DNA of 64,000 nucleotides from positions 186,001-250,000 of the forward strand of contig NZ_JBAWKJ010000003.1 of the NCBI RefSeq assembly GCF_037095755.1, written 5' to 3'. Source of the stretch: Sphingopyxis sp. CCNWLW2. GTDB lineage: Bacteria > Pseudomonadota > Alphaproteobacteria > Sphingomonadales > Sphingomonadaceae. How positions within the stretch are numbered: position 1 is the first letter of the stretch; each line of letters starts with the position of its first letter. Below, one piece after another: positions 441 to 9,622 of this stretch. Under the pieces are notes generated by a model. That model was not told the origin of the DNA. It made no database searches and was given only the letters and a program-made list of their open reading frames with translations. The translations under genes and the position numbers were made by a program.

Positions 441-2390
441 TCAATCCTCGACGTATAGATACTGGGTCTGCTGGCCGTCGTTGATGTTGAGCGTGCGCTT
501 GCCATCCTTGGTGCCGACCAGCGCATCGACTCCGATATTGCCGGGGCCGACCGAGACGATCGACATGCTGCCGTCGGCGTTCTTGCGCGTGGCGATCGGC
601 CCCTCGACGAAGCCGGCCTTGATCCATTTCTGGCCGTTCTTCTCGCTGATGCTGATCTGACCGACCGAGGGATCGCTATAGTGTCCGGCGAGGCCCGCGA
701 GCACCGCGGGATCGCCCGGATAGGTCAGCCGCTCGCGCTTCGCACTGGCCTGCGCCTTGATCCGCGTCGCGGCGGCGGTGATGTCGCGCGCTGCCTCGGG
801 CTGGCCGTCGTAGAGTATTTCGAGCAGGCGGCGGAGTGTCGGCGCAAGCATCGACGCACCCGGATCGCTGTTGACCAGGATCACGAGGCCGACGCCGGAC
901 TCGGGCAGCGCAAACCATGTGCTGTGATAACCCATCAGCGTGCCGCCATGCGTGACGACCTGCACCCCCGAGGCGTCGCGCTGGAACAACCCCATGCCGT
1001 ACCAGCTGTCGGGTCCCACCTGCACACCCTTCTCGCGCCGCGCGAGCAGGTTGGTTTCGCTCACCACGCGCTTGCCGTCGAGCATGCCTTTGCCGAGTTC
1101 GAGCTGGACGTAGCGGACCATATCGGCGGTGGTGGAAAAGGCCGCGCCCGCCGGACGATAGGGATAGGGCGCCCAGTTGAAGTCGTTCGACATCAGCGTC
1201 ACCTTGCCGTCGATGTCGAGGCCGTGCGGTGCCGCCCAATTGCCCGCCATGCCCTCGGCATAATCGAAGCTGCTGTCCTTCATGCCGAGCGGCTGGAAGA
1301 CCTTTTCTTCCATCGCGCGGTCATAGGCGGCGCCGAATTCCATCTTCGGATAGAGGATATGCCCGCCGACATAGCCCGCCGCTGAGGCGAGCTGGTTGTT
1401 ATACTGGAACAGGTCGCCGAACTTGCTGGTCGGCATGGTGGCGGCAAGCTGCGCAAAGGTGTCCGCGGCCGGCTGGCCCTTGTCGGCGAGGATGAAGCTG
1501 AAGTCCTTGCGCGGCAGGCCGGTGCAGGCGCAGATCAGATGCTTGACGAGCACCGACTTGGTGACCTCGTCGTTGCCGAGGCGGAATTCGGGATAGAGAT
1601 CGACGACCTTCTCGTCCCAGCGCAGCTTGCCCTCGTCGGCGAGCGTCGAGAGGAGCAGCGTGGTCATCCCCTTGGTGTTCGACGCGATCATGAATTTGGT
1701 GTGTTCGTCGACCTTTTCGGGCGAGCCGAGCGCACGGACGCCGAAGCCGCCCTGCCAAAGCACCTTGCCATCATCGATCAGCGCAAAGCCGACGCCGGGG
1801 ACTTCGAGTTCCTGCCGGCTCTGCTCGACGAAATCGGTGAGCAGCTTGACGCGCTCGGGCGTGAGTTCGTGCGCGGTCTTGCCCGCGAAGCTTTCCTTCT
1901 GGAAACCGGCGGGGCGCAGTCCCTGCGCGACCACCGACATCGCGGCCGAGCGCTTCGCGGCGGTGCCCGCCGAGCCGTCGACGATCAGCACGGTCCACGC
2001 GGTGCCCTTGCGCAATGCGGTCGCCGCGCGCGCGGCGCGCTCGGTGGGCAGCGTGTCATAGGCGAAACTCACGCGCTCTTCCCAACCGTCGGCCGGGGGA
2101 GCGGCGGTGCTGGTGCGCAGATCCGGCGCGGCGCCCGGGCGGACGATCGCCCACGCCTTTGCGGCCGCGTCCTTGGCATCGGCGGCGGTTCCGACCTCGG
2201 CGACGACGATGCGAAGGTCACCCTCGGGCGAGGTGAAGACGAGCGCGGGGCCCTGCTTCGATGCGGTCCAGTCCTTGGGCTGGACATATTGCACGCCGCT
2301 GGCGAGCTTGCCGGGCGTGTCCGCCGCGACGGTCTGCGCAAGGGCGGCGACGGGCGCGCAGGAGAGCGCGAGGGCGATCAACAGCTTCAT
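441..2390 (-). CDS. Exported S12-family serine hydrolase (beta-lactamase-like), long form
   Basis: 649 residues starting with a signal peptide that ends near ALAQT (residue 19). An N-terminal region of about 150 residues of unknown type precedes a serine beta-lactamase/penicillin-binding-protein fold: S-N-T-K at 237-240 (nucleophile motif), Y-N-N at 330-332 and H-G-G at 481-483. A C-terminal domain of about 100 residues follows. Members of family S12 include D-aminopeptidases, D-Ala-D-Ala carboxypeptidases and esterases, and the motif set alone does not pick one. It is the last gene of a four-gene minus-strand run, 12 bases after the preceding hydrolase, together with a DgcN-like protein and an M19 dipeptidase. 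That context suggests action on D-amino-acid peptides in the periplasm, which is inference. Confidence 0.85.
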   Translation of the reverse strand: MKLLIALALSCAPVAALAQTVAADTPGKLASGVQYVQPKDWTASKQGPALVFTSPEGDLRIVVAEVGTAADAKDAAAKAWAIVRPGAAPDLRTSTAAPPADGWEERVSFAYDTLPTERAARAATALRKGTAWTVLIVDGSAGTAAKRSAAMSVVAQGLRPAGFQKESFAGKTAHELTPERVKLLTDFVEQSRQELEVPGVGFALIDDGKVLWQGGFGVRALGSPEKVDEHTKFMIASNTKGMTTLLLSTLADEGKLRWDEKVVDLYPEFRLGNDEVTKSVLVKHLICACTGLPRKDFSFILADKGQPAADTFAQLAATMPTSKFGDLFQYNNQLASAAGYVGGHILYPKMEFGAAYDRAMEEKVFQPLGMKDSSFDYAEGMAGNWAAPHGLDIDGKVTLMSNDFNWAPYPYRPAGAAFSTTADMVRYVQLELGKGMLDGKRVVSETNLLARREKGVQVGPDSWYGMGLFQRDASGVQVVTHGGTLMGYHSTWFALPESGVGLVILVNSDPGASMLAPTLRRLLEILYDGQPEAARDITAAATRIKAQASAKRERLTYPGDPAVLAGLAGHYSDPSVGQISISEKNGQKWIKAGFVEGPIATRKNADGSMSIVSVGPGNIGVDALVGTKDGKRTLNINDGQQTQYLYVED

Positions 2391-2402
2391 GATGGCTTCT
2401 CC

Positions 2403-3887
2403 TCAGGGCTGGACGAAATGATAGAGAACATGCGGTTGCGACGTGAACGACAGGCGCCAGCGCCCCTCGGCGCCGTGGAATAGCAATTGCTCATAAGGGC
2501 CGCCGGCGCGCGCGCCGGTGGCCTGTTCGAACCGCATCGGGCCGACGCGTTCCCAATAGCTGGTTTTCCCGTCGTTGGTGACGGTGACGGCATTCGGGCC
2601 CGCCGCGGCGATCTTCAGGTCGCGCTCGGGATTGGGCGCGCGCGCATAGTCGCGCCGGTTTACGCGATAGGCGCCGAGCGGCAGTGTCTCGTTGGCGGGC
2701 GCGGCGACGCGCGGGGCGGGAGCGACCGGGAACAGCCGGCCGATCAGCGCCTCGGTCAGTTCTGTGCGCCCGCCATAGCTGCCCTCGCCGCCGGTCTCGG
2801 AAACGAAGAAGCCCAGCCCCGCCTCGGGCGCCAGGATCATGTTCGAATGGAAGTCGCCGGTGTTGCCGCCATGGCCGACCATACGCGGGCCCTTTTCGCG
2901 GACGACGAAAAAGCCGTGCGCCATGCCGGGCAGCCCGGGGGCGTTGGCGACCGAGTTGGTCATCAGCAATTTGACCGAGGCGGGTTTCAGGATGCGCGCC
3001 TTGCCGAGCGCGCCGCCGTTCATCATCGCCATCATGAAGCGCGCCATGTCGGGGCCGCTGCTCGTTCCCGATCCCGCGGGCATCACCGGGCTGAACAGCT
3101 CGAACGGATCGGCGACGAGCCGCCCGTCCTTGACCTGATAGCCCGACGCCATGCGCGGCGCGAGCGCGGCGGGCAAAGGTTCGCGAAAGGTTGTGGCGTT
3201 CATCCCGAGCGGCGAAAAGATATGCTTTTCGACATAATCGGGAAAGGCTTCGCCCGACACGCGCTCGACGATATAGCCCGCGAGCACCGATCCATAGTTC
3301 GAATAGGAGGTCTCGGTCCCCGGGGCCCAATGGCGTACCGGAATATGCGTCTTCATCCATTCGACATAGGGTTGGATCTTGTCGGGCGTCGGCGCGGTGA
3401 GGCCGCCGACGTCGCTCATCCCCGGCGTGTGCGACAAAAGATCGCGCACGCGGATCGGCTTGCCCTCATACTCGGGGATTTTGAAATCGAGATATTTGTT
3501 CACATCGGCGTCGAGGTCGACGCGGCCTGCTTCGACCTGTTGCAGCAGCGCGGTCCAGGTGAACATCTTCGACACCGATCCCGGGCGGAACAACGTCTGC
3601 TGCCCGTCGACCGCGATGCCCTTGTCGATATCGGCAAAGCCATAGCCGCGCGAGAAAAGCACTTTGTCGCGATAGACGACGGTGACGATCGCGCCCGCGA
3701 CCTCGCGCGTCGCGATCTGCTGTGCCATCACGCCGTCGACGAAATCGGCAAGCCCGCCGATCCGGTCCTGCGGGATGCTATCGGTGGCTTGTGCGGCGGA
3801 CTGCGCCGTGGCGACGGAGGGCAGGGCGATTGAGCCGAGCAGCGCGGCGGCGAATGCGGTGCGGCGCAGGGCCGGGAGTCGGGTCAT
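2403..3887 (-). CDS. Exported S12-family serine hydrolase (beta-lactamase-like)
   Basis: 494 residues with a signal peptide ending near VATAQ (residue 29). Catalytic motifs of the class C beta-lactamase/D-peptidase fold are all visible: S-V-S-K at 104-107, Y-S-N at 195-197 and H-G-G at 338-340. A C-terminal lipocalin-like region of about 120 residues ends in a tryptophan- and arginine-containing beta-rich stretch, as in many S12 D-aminopeptidase/esterase relatives. It lies 25 bases after the DgcN-like gene and 12 bases before a second S12 hydrolase, so all four are probably co-transcribed. The two hydrolases are not recent duplicates: their lengths and domain order differ. Exact substrate unknown. 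Confidence 0.87.
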   Translation of the reverse strand: MTRLPALRRTAFAAALLGSIALPSVATAQSAAQATDSIPQDRIGGLADFVDGVMAQQIATREVAGAIVTVVYRDKVLFSRGYGFADIDKGIAVDGQQTLFRPGSVSKMFTWTALLQQVEAGRVDLDADVNKYLDFKIPEYEGKPIRVRDLLSHTPGMSDVGGLTAPTPDKIQPYVEWMKTHIPVRHWAPGTETSYSNYGSVLAGYIVERVSGEAFPDYVEKHIFSPLGMNATTFREPLPAALAPRMASGYQVKDGRLVADPFELFSPVMPAGSGTSSGPDMARFMMAMMNGGALGKARILKPASVKLLMTNSVANAPGLPGMAHGFFVVREKGPRMVGHGGNTGDFHSNMILAPEAGLGFFVSETGGEGSYGGRTELTEALIGRLFPVAPAPRVAAPANETLPLGAYRVNRRDYARAPNPERDLKIAAAGPNAVTVTNDGKTSYWERVGPMRFEQATGARAGGPYEQLLFHGAEGRWRLSFTSQPHVLYHFVQP

Positions 3888-3912
3888 GCAAGGTCTCCGA
3901 AGGGCAGGGGTT

Positions 3913-4953
3913 TCATGCGAGGCAGCTGTCGACGAGCGCGTCGAATGCGGGCCCGCCGCGGATGGGGTCGGCGACCGGCAAGCCGAGCCGCGCGCTCTCG
4001 CGCGCCATCAGTTCGGTTGCCGCCGCTTCGCCCAGCGCCGACGTGTTGAATGCAAAGCCGCCGCAGCGGATCGCGGGATTGGTCCGGCGGCCGAGCAGCA
4101 GGGTGAGCTCGACGATCTCTTCGACGCTGGTCAGCGTATAGCCCGCGGTGCCGAGCATCTCGGTGCGGCCGGGCTCGTGACAGACGACGAAGACGTCGGG
4201 CTGGCTGCCGTGGAGCAGGCCGAGCGACACCGCCGCATAGGCCGGGTGCGTCAATGCCCCCTGACCCTCGATCACGTCCCAGTGCCCCGCGCGCGCGTCG
4301 GGCGACAAGAGTTCAGCGGCGCCGGCCTCGAAATCGGAGACGACGGCGTCCATCGCGATGCCGCCGTCGGCGATCATGATGCCCGTCTGGCCGCTCGCGC
4401 GGAAATCGGTGTCGACGCCGCGCGCCACGAAGGCGCGGGCCAGCGCCAGCGCGGTATATTTCTTGCCAAGCGCGCAGTCGGTGCCGACGGTCAGCAGTCG
4501 TTTTCCGCTGCGCTTGCGCCCGGTGCCGACGGGGATCTGCGGCGGCGGCACGCGCACGTCGATCAGCTGGCGACCGAGCCGGTGCGCGGCTTCGGCAAGT
4601 TCGGGGATGTCGGAGAGGCGCATGTGCATGCCCGCGATCAGGTCGAGCCCCGCCTCCAGCGCCTCGACCAGCGACGCGCGCCAGTTCGCGGGGATCACGC
4701 CGCCGAGGTTGGCGACACCGATCACCAGCGCACGCGCGCCCCGCGCCCGCGCTTCGGCGGCGGTGAGCGCGTCCAGCCCCGTGGTGACCGTGGCGCCGGG
4801 CAGCCGTAGTTCGCCGACACATTTGTCGGGCGCCCAATCCTTCAGCCCGAAGGCGGTCTTTGCGAAGCCCGGGATGGTCGTGTCGCCAAGGAACAGCACA
4901 TAGGGCTGCGGCAACAAAAGCGCCCCGGCGATGCGATCGGTCAGCGCGTTCAT
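3913..4953 (-). CDS. dgcN: DgcN/DUF1611 family protein (putative D-glutamate N-acetyltransferase)
   Basis: 346 residues from ATG 4953. The stop of the upstream dipeptidase and this ATG overlap as TGATG, which decides the start over an in-frame ATG 12 bases earlier. The protein matches the DUF1611 family by its N-terminal PYVLFLGD segment and a nucleotide-binding-like loop G-T-D-C-A-L-G-K-K-Y-T at about 161-171. One characterised member, DgcN, N-acetylates D-glutamate for later racemisation by the enolase-family partner DgcA. No DgcA gene is in this window; the partners here are an M19 dipeptidase and two S12 hydrolases. Cytoplasmic, as no signal peptide is seen. Family assignment is firm, the D-glutamate reaction is inferred from family knowledge. 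Confidence 0.8.
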   Translation of the reverse strand: MNALTDRIAGALLLPQPYVLFLGDTTIPGFAKTAFGLKDWAPDKCVGELRLPGATVTTGLDALTAAEARARGARALVIGVANLGGVIPANWRASLVEALEAGLDLIAGMHMRLSDIPELAEAAHRLGRQLIDVRVPPPQIPVGTGRKRSGKRLLTVGTDCALGKKYTALALARAFVARGVDTDFRASGQTGIMIADGGIAMDAVVSDFEAGAAELLSPDARAGHWDVIEGQGALTHPAYAAVSLGLLHGSQPDVFVVCHEPGRTEMLGTAGYTLTSVEEIVELTLLLGRRTNPAIRCGGFAFNTSALGEAAATELMARESARLGLPVADPIRGGPAFDALVDSCLA

Positions 4954-6101
4954 CAGCCGCCCCACGTTGCGGTCAGGAGCCGCTGGAAATTGCCGCCGAG
5001 TACCGCGAGGATGTTCGCGTCGGAATATTTGCGGCGCAGCAGTTCTTCGGTCAGGTCGAACATCTTAAGCGGGTGATCGAACCCGTCGACGTCGATCTTC
5101 TCGCGAAAGGCGTAGCTGTCCTTATAGGCGCCGCGCAGCATCTTGTTCATCTCGGGCGAGGTGTCGTCATAGCCATAGAGGTCGGAATCGGTGCCGACGC
5201 CGACATGATCGATCCCGACGAGCTTCACGACATGGTCGATATGGTCGACATAGTTCACGATCGTCGTCGGATCGGTCTTGCTCACGAAATTGCGCACCCC
5301 GGTGATGCCCATCACGCCGCCCTTGGCAGCAAGCGCCTTGATCGCCTCGTCGGTCTTGACGCGCGGATGGTCGATCAGCGCGCGGCAATTGCTGTGCGTG
5401 ATCGCGATCGGCTTCGGCGAAATCTCGATGGCGTCGAGCGTCGTACGGTCGCCGCTGTGCGACACGTCGACGAGCATGCCCACCTCGTTCATCGCCTTGA
5501 TGATCTCGACGCCGAAATCGCTCACGCCGCCATCGACGCGCTCGGTCGACCCCGATCCGATGCGGTTCTGCGAATTATAGGTGAGCTGCGCGCAGCGCTG
5601 GCCAATCTCGTAGAAGGTCTTGACGTCGGCGGGGCGGTTGAAATGGTCGGCGTTCTGCAGCCCCATGATGACCGCGACCTTGCCGTCCTTCTTCGCGCGC
5701 AGGATGTCGGCGAATTTATCGACCCCGGTGAAGACATGGCTGTTGCGCGCGACGAAATTGCCCCAGATCGCGAAGAAGCTGAGCGCCTGTTCCTTCGCCG
5801 TCGGGCCGCCGATGCCCACCGCATGGTGGATGGCGTTGATGCCGCTGGCGCGAAAGTCCGCGGTTTCCTTTTCGCTCAGCGCCTTGGTGTAATAGCTCGG
5901 ATCGAAGTCGATCTTGATCGGTGCGAGCATGTCGACGACGACCGCGCGCTGGACCAGCTCGATCGCGCGCTTCGAATAGGCGCGGTTCGTCGCCGGATTG
6001 ATCTGGAAATGCGCGCGCGCAACATAGGGAGCGGCGAGGGGGGCAGCGAGCGCCGCGCCCGCAGCGCAAATCGCCTGCCGTCGAGAAAATAGCATCATCA
6101 T
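4953..6101 (-). CDS. M19 membrane dipeptidase-like protein with altered metal site
   Basis: 382 residues. The N-terminus has a Tat-like signal (SRRQAICAAGAALAAP). The fold is that of family M19 (renal/membrane dipeptidase), zinc enzymes that cleave L-D and L-L dipeptides and show tolerance for D-residues at the C-terminal position. Canonical ligands H215 (in DVSHS), H236 (in AITHSN) and the acid D305 (in VGVGTD) are present. The usual N-terminal H-x-D pair is replaced by D-M-L-A (57-60), and the bridging glutamate falls on Q149 (GLQNADHF). It is the first gene of a minus-strand operon with DgcN and two serine hydrolases, and is divergent from a TonB receptor across 317 bases. Two ATGs adjoin the start (MMM); 6101 is taken. 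Confidence 0.85.
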   Translation of the reverse strand: MMMLFSRRQAICAAGAALAAPLAAPYVARAHFQINPATNRAYSKRAIELVQRAVVVDMLAPIKIDFDPSYYTKALSEKETADFRASGINAIHHAVGIGGPTAKEQALSFFAIWGNFVARNSHVFTGVDKFADILRAKKDGKVAVIMGLQNADHFNRPADVKTFYEIGQRCAQLTYNSQNRIGSGSTERVDGGVSDFGVEIIKAMNEVGMLVDVSHSGDRTTLDAIEISPKPIAITHSNCRALIDHPRVKTDEAIKALAAKGGVMGITGVRNFVSKTDPTTIVNYVDHIDHVVKLVGIDHVGVGTDSDLYGYDDTSPEMNKMLRGAYKDSYAFREKIDVDGFDHPLKMFDLTEELLRRKYSDANILAVLGGNFQRLLTATWGG

Positions 6102-6418
6102 CCCCTGCTTTGTAATTTTCTGATTAGGACGATATTATCCCATTAGGGCTTCGTCAATCCGTCGCTTTCGAATCCTGAAAAACCTCTTCGCGTTTCACGC
6201 GAGCCGCCAGGCTGAGTGCCATAGCCGCAAGTCGTCGTCCCGGCTTTCGGCCCGATTCGGCACCCGAGGTCGATCGGCTTCAACGGAACTCATGGCAATT
6301 ATGAGCCTAATTTCTCTTAAAAGAAATATATTGTCCTATATAGGACATTGTGGCAGCTTCGACGCGGGGAACCAAAAAAGGCCGCCATCGAGCGGTCCAG
6401 CCAAAGGGGTGGATTGAT
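6102..6418. other. Divergent intergenic region between dipeptidase operon and TonB receptor
   Basis: 317 bases without a gene, AT-richer than the surroundings near its right side (6296-6350). It must hold the promoters of the minus-strand peptidase operon and of the plus-strand receptor. The clearest element is the perfect palindrome at 6332-6347, annotated separately. A second AT-rich patch lies near 6110-6150, close to the dipeptidase start, but I could not define a promoter there with confidence. Confidence 0.6.
6332..6347. promoter_or_regulatory. Perfect 16-bp palindrome, candidate operator
   Basis: TGTCCTATATAGGACA is a perfect inverted repeat, 71 bases upstream of the receptor ATG at 6419. 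It sits inside an AT-rich stretch (AAATATATTG just before it) that could contain the -10 region. Length and symmetry fit a dimeric regulator site such as those of GntR-type repressors, but the regulator is not encoded nearby. Confidence 0.55.
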
Positions 6419-9199
6419 ATGCGTAAGGACAGTGACAAGCTCGGTTACCGGCTCGCGCGCGGCAGCAGCATTGCGGCGTTGGCGGCCGGATTATGGCTCG
6501 CCGTGCCGGCCGCGGCGCAGACCGTCGCCGAAACCGAGGCCACGGCCGACGAGGAGATTCTCGTCACGGGATCGCGCATCGCGCGCGCCGGTTTCGATCA
6601 GCCGACCCCCACGACAGTGATCGGCGAGGATGAACTGCGCCTCGGCGCGCGTCCGAACATCCAGCAGGTGCTGAACGACCTTCCGCAAATCCGCCCGACG
6701 ACCACGCCGACCGTATCGAACGGCAACACCTCGACCGGCACCGCGCCCGTCGACATGCGCGGCCTGGGTGTCAACCGCACGCTGGTGTTGCTCGACGGCC
6801 GCCGCTTCGTCGGCGAGGGCAATCTGAATTTCATCCCGACCAATCTGGTCGAGCGCGTCGAAGTCGTGACCGGCGGCGCCTCGGCCGCCTGGGGCTCGGG
6901 CGCGGTCGCGGGCGTCGTAAACATCCTTCTCGACAAGGATTATGACGGCCTGTCGATCGGCGGCAATGTTGGCGTTTCGTCGCGCGGCGACGGGTTCCGC
7001 TATGGTTTCGATGCGAAATTCGGCACCGGCTTCGCCGACGGGCGCGGCCATTTCATCATCGGCGGCGAATATGTCAAAGACCGCGGCGTGATCAACCGCA
7101 GCACGCGGCCGAACCTCAACAGTCCCGATTTCATTCCGTCGGGCACGGGGTCGGAACTGGTCCGCGACGTGAACTTCGGCAATGTCACGCTGGGCGGCCT
7201 GATCACCAGCGGCGTGCTCGCGGGACAGACGTTCAACGCCGACGGCACGCTGCGTGCTTTCGATCGCGGCACGAGCGTCGGCGCGGGCGCTTTCCCGCTG
7301 CGGATGGTCGGCGGCGCGGATGGCATCAACCTCTATGACACCATTCCCGTCTCCTCGCCTTTCGAACGGCTGAGCACCTATGCCCGGCTGAGCTATGAGG
7401 TCGGCGACGCGACCTTCTGGGTCGACGGCAGCTATGCGCGTTCGCTGTCGAACGCGCCTTTCTTCGGCGACTTTACGGTCGGCGGGGCGCTCGGCCTGCC
7501 TTACCTCACGATCCAGGCGAACAACCCCTATCTGTCGACCGCGATCCGCGATCGCCTTGCCGCCGCGGGCGAGACGAGCTTCACCTTCGGCCGCTATTTC
7601 AACGACATCCTTCAACTGCAGTTCCGCGGCGAGCGGGTCAGCAAGGAAGGAGCGATCGGCGTCGACGGCACGTTCGGCAAGGGCTTCCGCTACAAGGCCT
7701 GGTACAGCCACGGCGAGGTCGAGAGCGAACAGTCGATGGGCAACTCGCGGTTGGTCCGGCAGTTCAGCAACGCGATCAATGCGGTGTCGAGCGGCGGGCA
7801 AATCGTCTGCGGCATCAATGCCGACGCGGACCCGACCAATAATGATCCCGCGTGCCGGCCGCTCAATCCCTTCGGCGCATTGAACGCGTCGCTCGAAGCA
7901 CGCGACTATGTCACCGGGGCGCAGCAATCGTTCGAAACCCGAAAGCTCGATTCGGTGGGCGCCGAAGTTCAGGGCGATCTCTTTTCCTTGTGGGCCGGCC
8001 CGGTGACCGTCGCGATCGGCGCCGAGGCACGCTGGGAGGAACAGGTCTCGTCGCGCGACGATTTCACGATCGCGAACGCCAGCAACTTCGGCATTCTCGT
8101 CTTTTCGACGCCCACGTCGGGCGGGTTCAACGTCAAGGAGGCGTTCGGCGAAGTCCTGTTCCCGCTGCTCAAGCTCGAAAATGCGGTCGAAATCGACCTG
8201 AGCGGCGCCGCGCGCTATTCGGATTACAGCACCAGCGGCGGCATCTGGACGTGGAAAGCCGGGGGCACGGCGCGGCTGTTTGGCGACCTGCTCCTGCGCG
8301 CAACGCGCTCGCGCGACATCCGCTCGCCGGGCATCGGCGAATTGTTCGCGCTCCGCGCGATTAACATCGGGCCGCTCAACGATCAGGACAGGGCCGGGCG
8401 AGCCGCGGCCAACCCCGCATATAATCCGCAGCCGTCGACCGTGACGACATTCACCGGCGGCAACCCCAATCTGGTGCCGGAAGTGAGCTACACGACGGCG
8501 ATCGGCGCAACATATTCGCCGTCCTTCCTGCGCGGCTTCAGCGCTTCGGTCGATTATTACAAGATCAAGATCGACGGTGCGGTCACGGCGCTGAACGGAT
8601 CGAACCTCACGCTCCTGTGCTCCCGCGGGGTCACATCCGCCTGCGATAGCATTACGCGCGATGCAACGGGGACGGTTACCCAGGTGGCCGCCACCCAGCA
8701 GAATATCGCGAGCTTCGAGACGAGCGGGCTCGACATGGAGGCATCCTATGTCGTCAACCTGTCGAACGTCAGTGCGGGCCTGCCGGGCAGCCTGCGCATC
8801 CGCGCACTGGCAACCTATGTCGACAAGCTGGTGTTCGATACCGGGGTTACCCGCGTCGAGACTGCGGGCGATGTCGGCGATTCGGTGCTGCGCGCGACGC
8901 CGAAATGGCGCGGGACGCTCAGCGCGACCTATGAGGATGACAATGTCGGGTTCGACATCCGCGCGCGGTATATCGATGGCGGCAATTTCGACCGGACACG
9001 CACGACCCTGATCAACAACAGGATCGCGTCGCGGACCTATGTCGACCTCGGCGCGCGGTTCAAGATCGACGATCGCTTCATGCTGTTCGGCAATGTGAAC
9101 AATGTGTTCGACCGCGATCCCCCGCTCATCACCGTCAACAGCACGCTGTACGACGTCGTCGGCCGCTACTTCACCGTCGGCGCGAAGGTCGATTTCTAA
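6419..9199 (+). CDS. TonB-dependent outer-membrane receptor
   Basis: 926 residues from ATG 6419, preceded by a GGGGTGG ribosome site; an upstream in-frame GTG at 6350 would put 23 basic, non-signal residues before the signal peptide and is rejected. Signal peptide ends at PAAAQT. A TonB-box-like stretch (DEEILVTGSRI) leads into a plug domain (FNQP-type segment, VLLDGRRFV, VEVVTGGASAAWGSGAVAG) and a C-terminal 22-strand barrel ending in an aromatic residue (KVDF). It imports a substrate across the outer membrane using TonB energy. It is divergent from the peptidase/DgcN operon, so peptides or amino-acid conjugates are the likely cargo; this is inference. A strong hairpin follows the stop. Confidence 0.9.
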   Translation: MRKDSDKLGYRLARGSSIAALAAGLWLAVPAAAQTVAETEATADEEILVTGSRIARAGFDQPTPTTVIGEDELRLGARPNIQQVLNDLPQIRPTTTPTVSNGNTSTGTAPVDMRGLGVNRTLVLLDGRRFVGEGNLNFIPTNLVERVEVVTGGASAAWGSGAVAGVVNILLDKDYDGLSIGGNVGVSSRGDGFRYGFDAKFGTGFADGRGHFIIGGEYVKDRGVINRSTRPNLNSPDFIPSGTGSELVRDVNFGNVTLGGLITSGVLAGQTFNADGTLRAFDRGTSVGAGAFPLRMVGGADGINLYDTIPVSSPFERLSTYARLSYEVGDATFWVDGSYARSLSNAPFFGDFTVGGALGLPYLTIQANNPYLSTAIRDRLAAAGETSFTFGRYFNDILQLQFRGERVSKEGAIGVDGTFGKGFRYKAWYSHGEVESEQSMGNSRLVRQFSNAINAVSSGGQIVCGINADADPTNNDPACRPLNPFGALNASLEARDYVTGAQQSFETRKLDSVGAEVQGDLFSLWAGPVTVAIGAEARWEEQVSSRDDFTIANASNFGILVFSTPTSGGFNVKEAFGEVLFPLLKLENAVEIDLSGAARYSDYSTSGGIWTWKAGGTARLFGDLLLRATRSRDIRSPGIGELFALRAINIGPLNDQDRAGRAAANPAYNPQPSTVTTFTGGNPNLVPEVSYTTAIGATYSPSFLRGFSASVDYYKIKIDGAVTALNGSNLTLLCSRGVTSACDSITRDATGTVTQVAATQQNIASFETSGLDMEASYVVNLSNVSAGLPGSLRIRALATYVDKLVFDTGVTRVETAGDVGDSVLRATPKWRGTLSATYEDDNVGFDIRARYIDGGNFDRTRTTLINNRIASRTYVDLGARFKIDDRFMLFGNVNNVFDRDPPLITVNSTLYDVVGRYFTVGAKVDF

Positions 9200-9213
9200 T
9201 CGGATCCGTTTTC

Positions 9214-9264
9214 GGGGCAGTTCGAAGCAAGGTCACGCAGTCCCGGCCTTGCTTCGGCTGCCCC
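9214..9264. terminator. Bidirectional terminator hairpin between TonB receptor and ridA
   Basis: Two stacked perfect stems: GGGGCAG (9214-9220) pairs with CTGCCCC (9258-9264), and CGAAGCAAGG (9223-9232) pairs with CCTTGCTTCG (9247-9256), with a 14-base loop. It lies between two convergent genes (stops at 9199 and 9275), so it can end transcription in both directions. Confidence 0.75.
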
Positions 9265-9274
9265 GAGGAGGGCG

Positions 9275-9622
9275 TCAGGGCCGGGCGGCGGTGACGATGA
9301 TTTCCACGCGGTAGTCGGGCGTTGCCAGACGGACTTCGCCGGTCGCCCGCGTCGGCGCATTGGCGCCGCCGATCCATTCTTCCCAAACCACGTTCATCGC
9401 GGCGAAATCGGCCATGTCGGCCAGCCAGACCATGGCCGTGAGCAGGTGCGACTTATCGGTGCCGGCCTCGGCGAGCAATTCGTCGATCGATGCGAGAATG
9501 GCGCGCGTTTGCTTCGTCGCGTCCTCGCCCGGCGCGCCAACCTGGCCAGCCAGATAGACGATGCCGCCATGGATCACGGCCTGGCTCATGCGCGGGCCCG
9601 AATGCAGGCGTTCGATGCTCAT
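9275..9622 (-). CDS. RidA family (YjgF/YER057c/UK114) protein
   Basis: 115 residues from ATG 9622, preceded by GGAGATT; a longer frame upstream lacks family similarity. RidA proteins hydrolyse reactive enamine/imine intermediates such as 2-aminoacrylate released by pyridoxal-phosphate enzymes or by amino-acid oxidases. The C-terminal half carries the family pattern with an arginine in APTRATGEVRL and a terminal YRVEIIVTA strand. It is convergent with the TonB receptor and might serve the same catabolic island by removing imines formed from D- or L-amino acids, though RidA paralogs are common and this link is inference. Confidence 0.85.
   Translation of the reverse strand: MSIERLHSGPRMSQAVIHGGIVYLAGQVGAPGEDATKQTRAILASIDELLAEAGTDKSHLLTAMVWLADMADFAAMNVVWEEWIGGANAPTRATGEVRLATPDYRVEIIVTAARP

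What the first reader, a model, noticed from the sequence alone, without database searches (positions are those of the whole stretch)
441..9622. Candidate system for uptake and breakdown of D-amino-acid-containing peptides
Seen: a four-gene minus-strand run (M19 dipeptidase-like, DgcN/DUF1611, two exported S12 hydrolases) with overlaps or gaps under 30 bases, divergent from a large TonB receptor, with RidA after it. Known: M19 enzymes accept L-D dipeptides, S12 includes D-aminopeptidases, and DgcN acetylates D-glutamate for racemisation by DgcA. Inference: the receptor imports D-residue peptides (peptidoglycan-derived or from D-Glu polymers), periplasmic hydrolases trim them and DgcN handles D-Glu. 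The usual DgcA partner is absent here, which makes the route non-standard.
Basis: partly seen in the sequence, partly recalled or inferred. Interest (0 to 1): 0.75.

Follow-up and report, generated by a model that had tools for sequence, protein, structure and literature searches.

The report
Satellite D-glutamate scavenging gene cluster
A bacterium of the Sphingopyxis group carries a small extra gene cluster that probably helps it take up and break down compounds containing mirror-image (D-) glutamate, and a shared DNA switch suggests it is run together with larger D-glutamate gene clusters elsewhere in the genome.

Summary
The gene run is real: S12 (441-2390), S12 (2403-3887), DgcN/DUF1611 (3913-4953), M19 (4953-6101), divergent from a TonB receptor; RidA is convergent and not part of it. 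'DgcA absent, so non-standard' holds only locally. The genome has four DUF1611 genes; the other three lie 0.5-6 kb from DgcA homologues, one pair over both NCBI cut-offs. The 19 genomes checked with this M19 type all hold DgcA homologues, and in one (Sphingomonas sp. R647) DgcA, a deacylase and a regulator follow the same four genes. A motif learned from promoters beside HTH-cupin genes of related operons has its best site of the whole window between M19 and TonB (29.2; maximum of 100 simulations 17.5) and ranks first in 18 of 21 related loci. I read the cluster as a satellite of a D-glutamate regulon, with DgcA supplied in trans. The M19 protein keeps the fold but lacks three of the usual metal ligands, so the L-D dipeptidase inference is weak. 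Substrate and regulation are inferred, not shown.

The parts
441..2390 (-). Exported S12 serine hydrolase (S12a), with about 180 residues before the catalytic domain; SxxK, YxN and HxG motifs present
   Evidence: PF00144 172.9 bits, residues 186-520; motifs at 237, 330, 481
2403..3887 (-). Exported S12 serine hydrolase (S12b); soluble relative (46% identity over 331 residues) of the first core-operon S12 protein of L018, which has four C-terminal hydrophobic segments
   Evidence: (217.8 bits)
3913..4953 (-). DgcN-like DUF1611 protein of a sister subfamily (class II here); ATG start at 4953 overlaps the M19 stop by 1 bp
   Evidence: 226.5 bits; NF041892 434.6 of 480; 7xrj; tree
4953..6101 (-). 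M19-fold protein, exported, with L, P, Q in place of the HxD and bridging Glu metal ligands
6116..6141 (+). Predicted operator (dyad TTTTCTGATTAGGACGATATTATCCC) shared with HTH-cupin-linked operons
   Evidence: kept in relatives
6129..6157 (-). Possible promoter of the four-gene run: -35 TTGACG (6157-6152), -10 TATCGT (6134-6129), overlapping the operator; placed by eye
6332..6347 (.). Perfect 16-bp palindrome TGTCCTATATAGGACA on the TonB side of the intergenic region; possible second, weaker operator
   Evidence: the second and third best sites of the window (15.3 and 6.3) overlap it
6350..9199 (+). TonB-dependent receptor, likely start ATG 6419; ligand unknown

Best explanation
The cluster is a satellite of a D-glutamate scavenging regulon. 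Shown: a conserved cluster; common ancestry of its DgcN with the DgcN of 'class II' operons that typically also carry DgcA, a YkvI-type membrane protein, S12 and M19 proteins, a TonB receptor and an HTH-cupin gene; DgcA homologues elsewhere in the genome; a shared operator-like site. Inferred: the TonB receptor brings in a compound holding D-Glu (peptidoglycan fragments, other D-Glu peptides or N-acyl-D-Glu); the exported S12 hydrolases, perhaps with the M19-fold protein, release D-Glu or a small D-Glu compound in the periplasm; a carrier (YkvI-type in the other loci) takes it inward; DgcN N-acetylates D-Glu; DgcA, encoded in the other loci, epimerises N-acetyl-D-Glu; a deacylase or general N-acetyl-Glu hydrolase gives L-Glu. 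The HTH-cupin regulator of the core loci controls the satellite in trans through the dyad at 6116-6141.
For: Linkage: within 10 kb of the M19 gene in 80 named loci, S12 in 75, TonB 70 (71 with more TonB queries), DgcN 68, DgcA 52, YkvI-type 50, HTH-cupin 49, in Alpha- and Gammaproteobacteria. DgcA homologues in 19 of 19 genomes checked. In the group of the window's DgcN (support 100/98) the first branch, L029, has M19-DgcN-S12b-S12a-DgcA-deacylase-HTH-cupin in one direction. A deacylase is in 6 of 13 window-type loci, directly after S12a in 5 and after DgcA in L029; it matches best the own-genome L017 deacylase, whose best solved match is N-acyl-D-glutamate deacylase 3gip (213 bits; D-aminoacylase 198). 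Operator; 22 class I DgcN-DgcA loci (407,690 bp) have no site as strong.
Against: No binding, expression or enzyme data. DgcN is under NCBI's equivalog cut-off, so its acceptor may not be D-Glu. The other own-genome deacylase (L016) matches D-aminoacylase (205 bits) better than 3gip (162.5). No inner-membrane carrier in the cluster itself. 12 of 80 M19 loci have no DgcN within 10 kb (3 of them on contigs of 3.9-8.2 kb); four Steroidobacter-type loci (L047, L048, L053, L054) show no other member but one weak TonB match, and in L031 and L032 the M19-S12b-S12a run occurs without DgcN. The window TonB and the core L018 TonB do not match each other at E 1e-5. L037 and L038 lack the operator before M19.
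Confidence: 0.58

Rival explanations
1. Self-contained, non-standard route: receptor, hydrolases and DgcN act without DgcA, N-acetyl-D-Glu being an end product or a detoxified form.
For: DgcA is absent from the window cluster and from 12 of 13 window-type loci.
Against: 19 of 19 genomes checked carry DgcA homologues; the first-branching relative L029 has DgcA inside the cluster; the shared operator ties the satellite to loci with DgcA.
Confidence: 0.08
2. Class II DgcN acetylates another D-amino acid or a D-residue dipeptide, and class II DgcA epimerises that product; the regulon serves a different D-compound, such as D-Asp or D-Asn peptides or a natural product.
For: In this genome class II DgcN (434.6, 443.6, 459.1 of 480) and DgcA (359.2, 375.1 of 400) all miss the equivalog cut-offs, while the class I pair passes (518, 426.9); most class I rows separate from class II in the tree (98/93); the genome keeps both kinds. 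PMC12363236 (passages seen) calls dgcN key to acidic D-amino acids and their amides.
Against: 50% identity of the window DgcN to the class I copy with the region GTDC..GK kept; the core deacylase points to N-acyl-D-Glu, by a small margin.
Confidence: 0.25
3. Beta-lactam resistance or cell-wall maintenance cluster built around the S12 proteins.
For: S12 is the beta-lactamase fold family.
Against: The class C beta-lactamase model scores 44.7 and 82.6 against a cut-off of 415; the company of TonB, DgcN and DgcA points to nutrition.
Confidence: 0.03

Closest known systems
DgcN-DgcA D-glutamate catabolic pathway (Yu et al. 2023, ISME J 17:537-548; paper not held, content recalled; seen only as reference 27 of PMC12363236)
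   Same: DgcN-like acetyltransferase in the cluster; a DgcN-DgcA pair over both NCBIfam cut-offs elsewhere in this genome (L016)
   Different: The window DgcN belongs to a sister subfamily, has no DgcA beside it, and sits with a TonB receptor, S12 and M19 genes
M19 dipeptidases (Sco3058, human renal dipeptidase)
S12 D-aminopeptidase / alkaline D-peptidase / ClbP group
   Same: Catalytic motifs and family
   Different: The equivalog model for D-aminopeptidase is not reached (39.5 and 61.4 of 443)
N-acyl-D-glutamate deacylase (3gip)
   Same: Best solved relative of the L017 deacylase, whose homologues sit in 6 of 13 window-type loci
   Different: Not encoded in the window cluster itself

Membership tests
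DgcN N-acetyltransferase (NF041892) | Score over the curated equivalog cut-off (480) | tested here: not met
   434.6 bits; class I copy L016 reaches 518
DgcN N-acetyltransferase (NF041892) | D-Glu N-acetyltransferase activity | not testable with these tools
   needs an enzyme assay
DgcN-DgcA pathway locus | dgcA beside dgcN | tested here: not met
   the only PF13378 match on this contig is about 570 kb away
DgcN-DgcA pathway locus | DgcA present in the genome | tested here: met
   three DgcA homologues near the other DUF1611 genes, one over its cut-off (426.9 of 400)
Peptidase M19 | Pfam M19 domain and fold | tested here: met
Peptidase M19 | Binuclear metal ligands HxD, Glu, His, His, and the Asp (roles recalled) | tested here: not met
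   L59, P61, Q149 in place of H, D, E; H215, H236, D305 kept; same in 83 of 83 rows of this type, full set in 36 of 36 companion M19 rows. The patterns covered these two places, so the sample leans that way
S12 serine hydrolases | SxxK, Y-x-N, H-x-G motifs | tested here: met
   both window proteins
Class C beta-lactamase | NCBIfam NF033085 cut-off 415 | tested here: not met
   44.7 and 82.6 bits
HTH-cupin-linked class II regulon (named here) | Operator-like dyad in the promoter region | tested here: met
   top site of the window, 29.2; 100 simulated windows, maximum 17.5
HTH-cupin-linked class II regulon (named here) | Binding and regulation by the HTH-cupin protein | not testable with these tools
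   needs binding or expression data

The most novel reading that the evidence does not exclude
Sphingomonads and some Gammaproteobacteria have a dispersed D-glutamate regulon: full core operons (receptor, S12 and M19 hydrolases, YkvI-type carrier, class II DgcN and DgcA, deacylase, HTH-cupin sensor) plus satellites like this one that share the operator and rely on DgcA in trans. An M19-fold protein stripped of its first metal site is a standing part of it, either a one-metal hydrolase of D-Glu compounds or a periplasmic binding protein.
Probability: 0.4. Interest if true: 0.65.

Novelty: new variant of a known kind. Interest (0 to 1): 0.5.

Why it matters
D-Glu in peptidoglycan remnants is a pool of hard-to-use carbon and nitrogen. 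A defined regulon with an operator, a candidate regulator, a receptor and candidate periplasmic hydrolases would turn the question of how Gram-negative bacteria feed on D-Glu compounds into a set of direct tests, and would give a setting to an M19 subfamily that public sources name dipeptidase but that lacks the metal ligands of one.

Tried and rejected
RidA as a member: rejected (convergent; matched in 4 of 80 loci). DgcA lost genome-wide: rejected. An in-frame TAG is reported for DgcA in three relatives; in L060, L078 and L086 (the core loci of the same organisms by title) the DgcA frame is open over the whole match, so I do not read it as decay. Microcystin-degradation link (family PF07364): 0 matches, but no control genome rang either, so nothing follows. 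Anti-phage defence: no PADLOC match for five proteins. The Foldseek PDB search did not run; the VIA second look was used instead.

Literature: no account of this cluster was seen in the listings (1 paper; 20 of 82 listed; 2; 0; 0; 20 of 184 listed; 2; 12 of 14 listed; 8) and 73 (3). Of these I saw titles and starts of abstracts only, plus passages of PMC12363236 and PMC10845958. PMC11747546 (a Rhodobacteraceae strain that uses D-amino-acid peptides) was listed and not opened. The library holds open-licence papers only.

Rows dropped before counts: leave out the own four DUF1611 places and two weak ones (G002, G077), leaving 46 in 29 genomes, of which L124 and L127 overlap; L120 is class II only through one S12 match of 306 bits. 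L001, L002, L003, L004 and L012 are duplicate copies of own-genome genes inside the tree. One search left out L018 and L102 and collapsed the other 59 promoters. One search kept M19 rows over 250 bits. The 22 class I loci are L016 and 21 of the 28 class I loci, chosen by eye as DgcN-DgcA pairs. One search was given the genomes of 19 of the 80 loci.
Full report
Anatomy. The M19 gene overlaps the DgcN start codon at 4953 by one base; the other gaps are 25 and 12 bases. To the left the run ends against a convergent gene (L015). The genome is probably Sphingopyxis: the M19 protein is 97% identical to one of Sphingopyxis sp. OAS728. RidA (9275-9622) runs towards the TonB gene and is not part of the unit.

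The genome holds four DUF1611 genes. Three of them lie 0.5, 4 and 6 kb from enolase-superfamily genes whose best NCBIfam model is DgcA. One pair (L016, beside a LysR-type gene) is over both curated cut-offs: DgcN 518 of 480, DgcA 426.9 of 400. The window DgcN and those of L018 and L017 score 434.6, 443.6 and 459.1 of 480, and DgcA of L018 and L017 359.2 and 375.1 of 400. L018 is an eight-gene run: S12, DgcA, M19 of the window's type, TonB, DgcN, YkvI-type membrane protein, S12, canonical M19 (the YkvI name is the one public sources give).

Linkage in relatives. From an M19 alignment 80 loci were fetched (the best 80 of 100 confirmed). Within 10 kb: S12 75, TonB 70, DgcN 68, DgcA 52, YkvI-type 50, HTH-cupin 49 of 80 (repeated). 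Many are close relatives (Sphingopyxis), so these are not independent events; but DgcN is found near M19 also in Sphingosinicella, Novosphingobium, Erythrobacteraceae, Rudaea, Luteimonas, Povalibacter and one Steroidobacter-type locus (L049). Against: of the 12 loci without DgcN, three are contigs of 3.9-8.2 kb, while L047, L048, L053 and L054 (Steroidobacter type) have nothing of the module nearby apart from one weak TonB match. Starting instead from DUF1611: 32 of 119 family genomes have a match (31 over the cut-off). Of 46 such loci outside the own genome, 18 have S12 (over 300 bits) or a YkvI-type gene within 8 kb (class II) and 28 do not (class I). M19 of the window's type occurs in 10 of 18 class II and 0 of 28 class I loci; DgcA in 14 of 18 and 22 of 28; HTH-cupin in 14 of 18 and 2 of 28; deacylase in 6 of 18 and 18 of 28; TonB in 12 of 18 and 11 of 28. 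TonB alone is weak evidence, as this genome has 99 plug matches.

DgcN tree (119 rows, 108 different, midpoint root). A supported branch (98/93) separates 25 rows, 23 of them class I and including L016, from 94 rows that hold all 68 core and all 15 window-type rows, 7 unlabelled ones and 4 labelled class I (three of these on long branches). Fourteen of 15 window-type rows (with one duplicate of the window's own) form a group with support 100/98; L035 lies outside it. Sphingomonas sp. R647 (L029) branches first. L029 carries M19, DgcN, S12b, S12a, DgcA, deacylase and HTH-cupin gene in one direction, divergent from TonB. So the window form is most simply a reduced form. Of 13 window-type loci (L019-L030, L036), all have TonB divergent and upstream, 1 has DgcA and 6 the deacylase. 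The 19 genomes of L019-L037 all have DgcA matches (best 467 bits or more in each) and DUF1611.

Shared operator. I noticed by eye that the promoter regions of the window M19, L018 and L017 align, and then tested this. HTH-cupin genes are divergent from a gene of the module in 61 loci. A motif of width 34 was learned by EM from random seeds on 35 nonredundant promoters, without the own genome: TTTGACAATTTTCTAATCAGGATCATTATGTCC. It combines a -35 element and a dyad. With the full motif the best site of the 64-kb window is at 6108-6141 (18.1); the next two (5.4, 0.8) lie in the same intergenic region, the best elsewhere scores -2.2. None of 100 order-2 simulated windows (maximum 7.3) and none of 2000 simulations of a 248-bp intergenic stretch (maximum 15.8) reached 18.1; one of six order-1 simulated windows reached 13.3. 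With the first eight columns dropped the site scores 29.2 against a simulated maximum of 17.5; the best site of the whole locus lies within 160 bp before the M19 start in 18 of 21 loci L019-L039 (L034 second; L037 and L038 none; L034 and L037 had each given a training promoter); and 22 class I loci (407,690 bp) hold none of that strength. In the own genome the core operon L018 has the site before its first gene (62.6) and again before its M19 gene (24.4), L017 scores 24.9, L016 at best -9.2. The half-site pattern TTYYCYRATYAGGA has five exact places in 4.6 Mb, of which the three with TTTTC are the two L018 sites and the window (pattern chosen after the sites were known). In nine aligned intergenic regions of window-type loci the dyad is kept while much of the rest varies. 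On the minus strand a possible promoter (TTGACG, 17 bp, TATCGT) overlaps the dyad (by eye). That the HTH-cupin protein binds the site is inference from its position.

S12 proteins. Both have the three catalytic motifs and signal-like N-termini. S12b is a soluble counterpart (46% over 331 residues) of the first protein of the L018 operon, which has four C-terminal hydrophobic segments, an arrangement that recalls ClbP (recalled). No curated specificity model is reached.

Verdict. A new variant of the known DgcN-DgcA pathway: conserved, probably co-regulated with larger operons, with one unusual component. The D-Glu substrate is likely but not shown.

Noticed in passing
L149 and L150 (G000:C2:1097435 and C2:1054114): Two more M19-family genes in this genome with Gln in place of the bridging Glu and no HxD, not near a DUF1611 gene; the first lies between two TonB receptor genes.
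   Followed up: no
window 6310-6327: Inverted repeat ATTTCTCTTAAAAGAAAT next to the TonB-side palindrome, in the same intergenic region.
   Followed up: no
L031 and L032: M19-S12b-S12a runs without DgcN next to them, while the single DUF1611 gene of each genome lies within 1 kb of a DgcA match elsewhere.
   Followed up: partly
G085: A same-family genome with seven DUF1611 genes, several on long tree branches with other neighbours, hinting at further functions of the family.
   Followed up: no
L015 2621-14401 (left of the window): Carbohydrate and aromatic-ester type genes by appearance (rhamnosidase-like, tannase-like, acyl-CoA ligase-like, GH3-like), the last convergent with the cluster; names by eye.
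   Followed up: no
window 6350-9199 versus L018 11503-13734: The receptors of the satellite and of the core operon do not match each other at E 1e-5 although DgcN, M19 and S12b do, as if receptors were exchanged between modules.
   Followed up: partly
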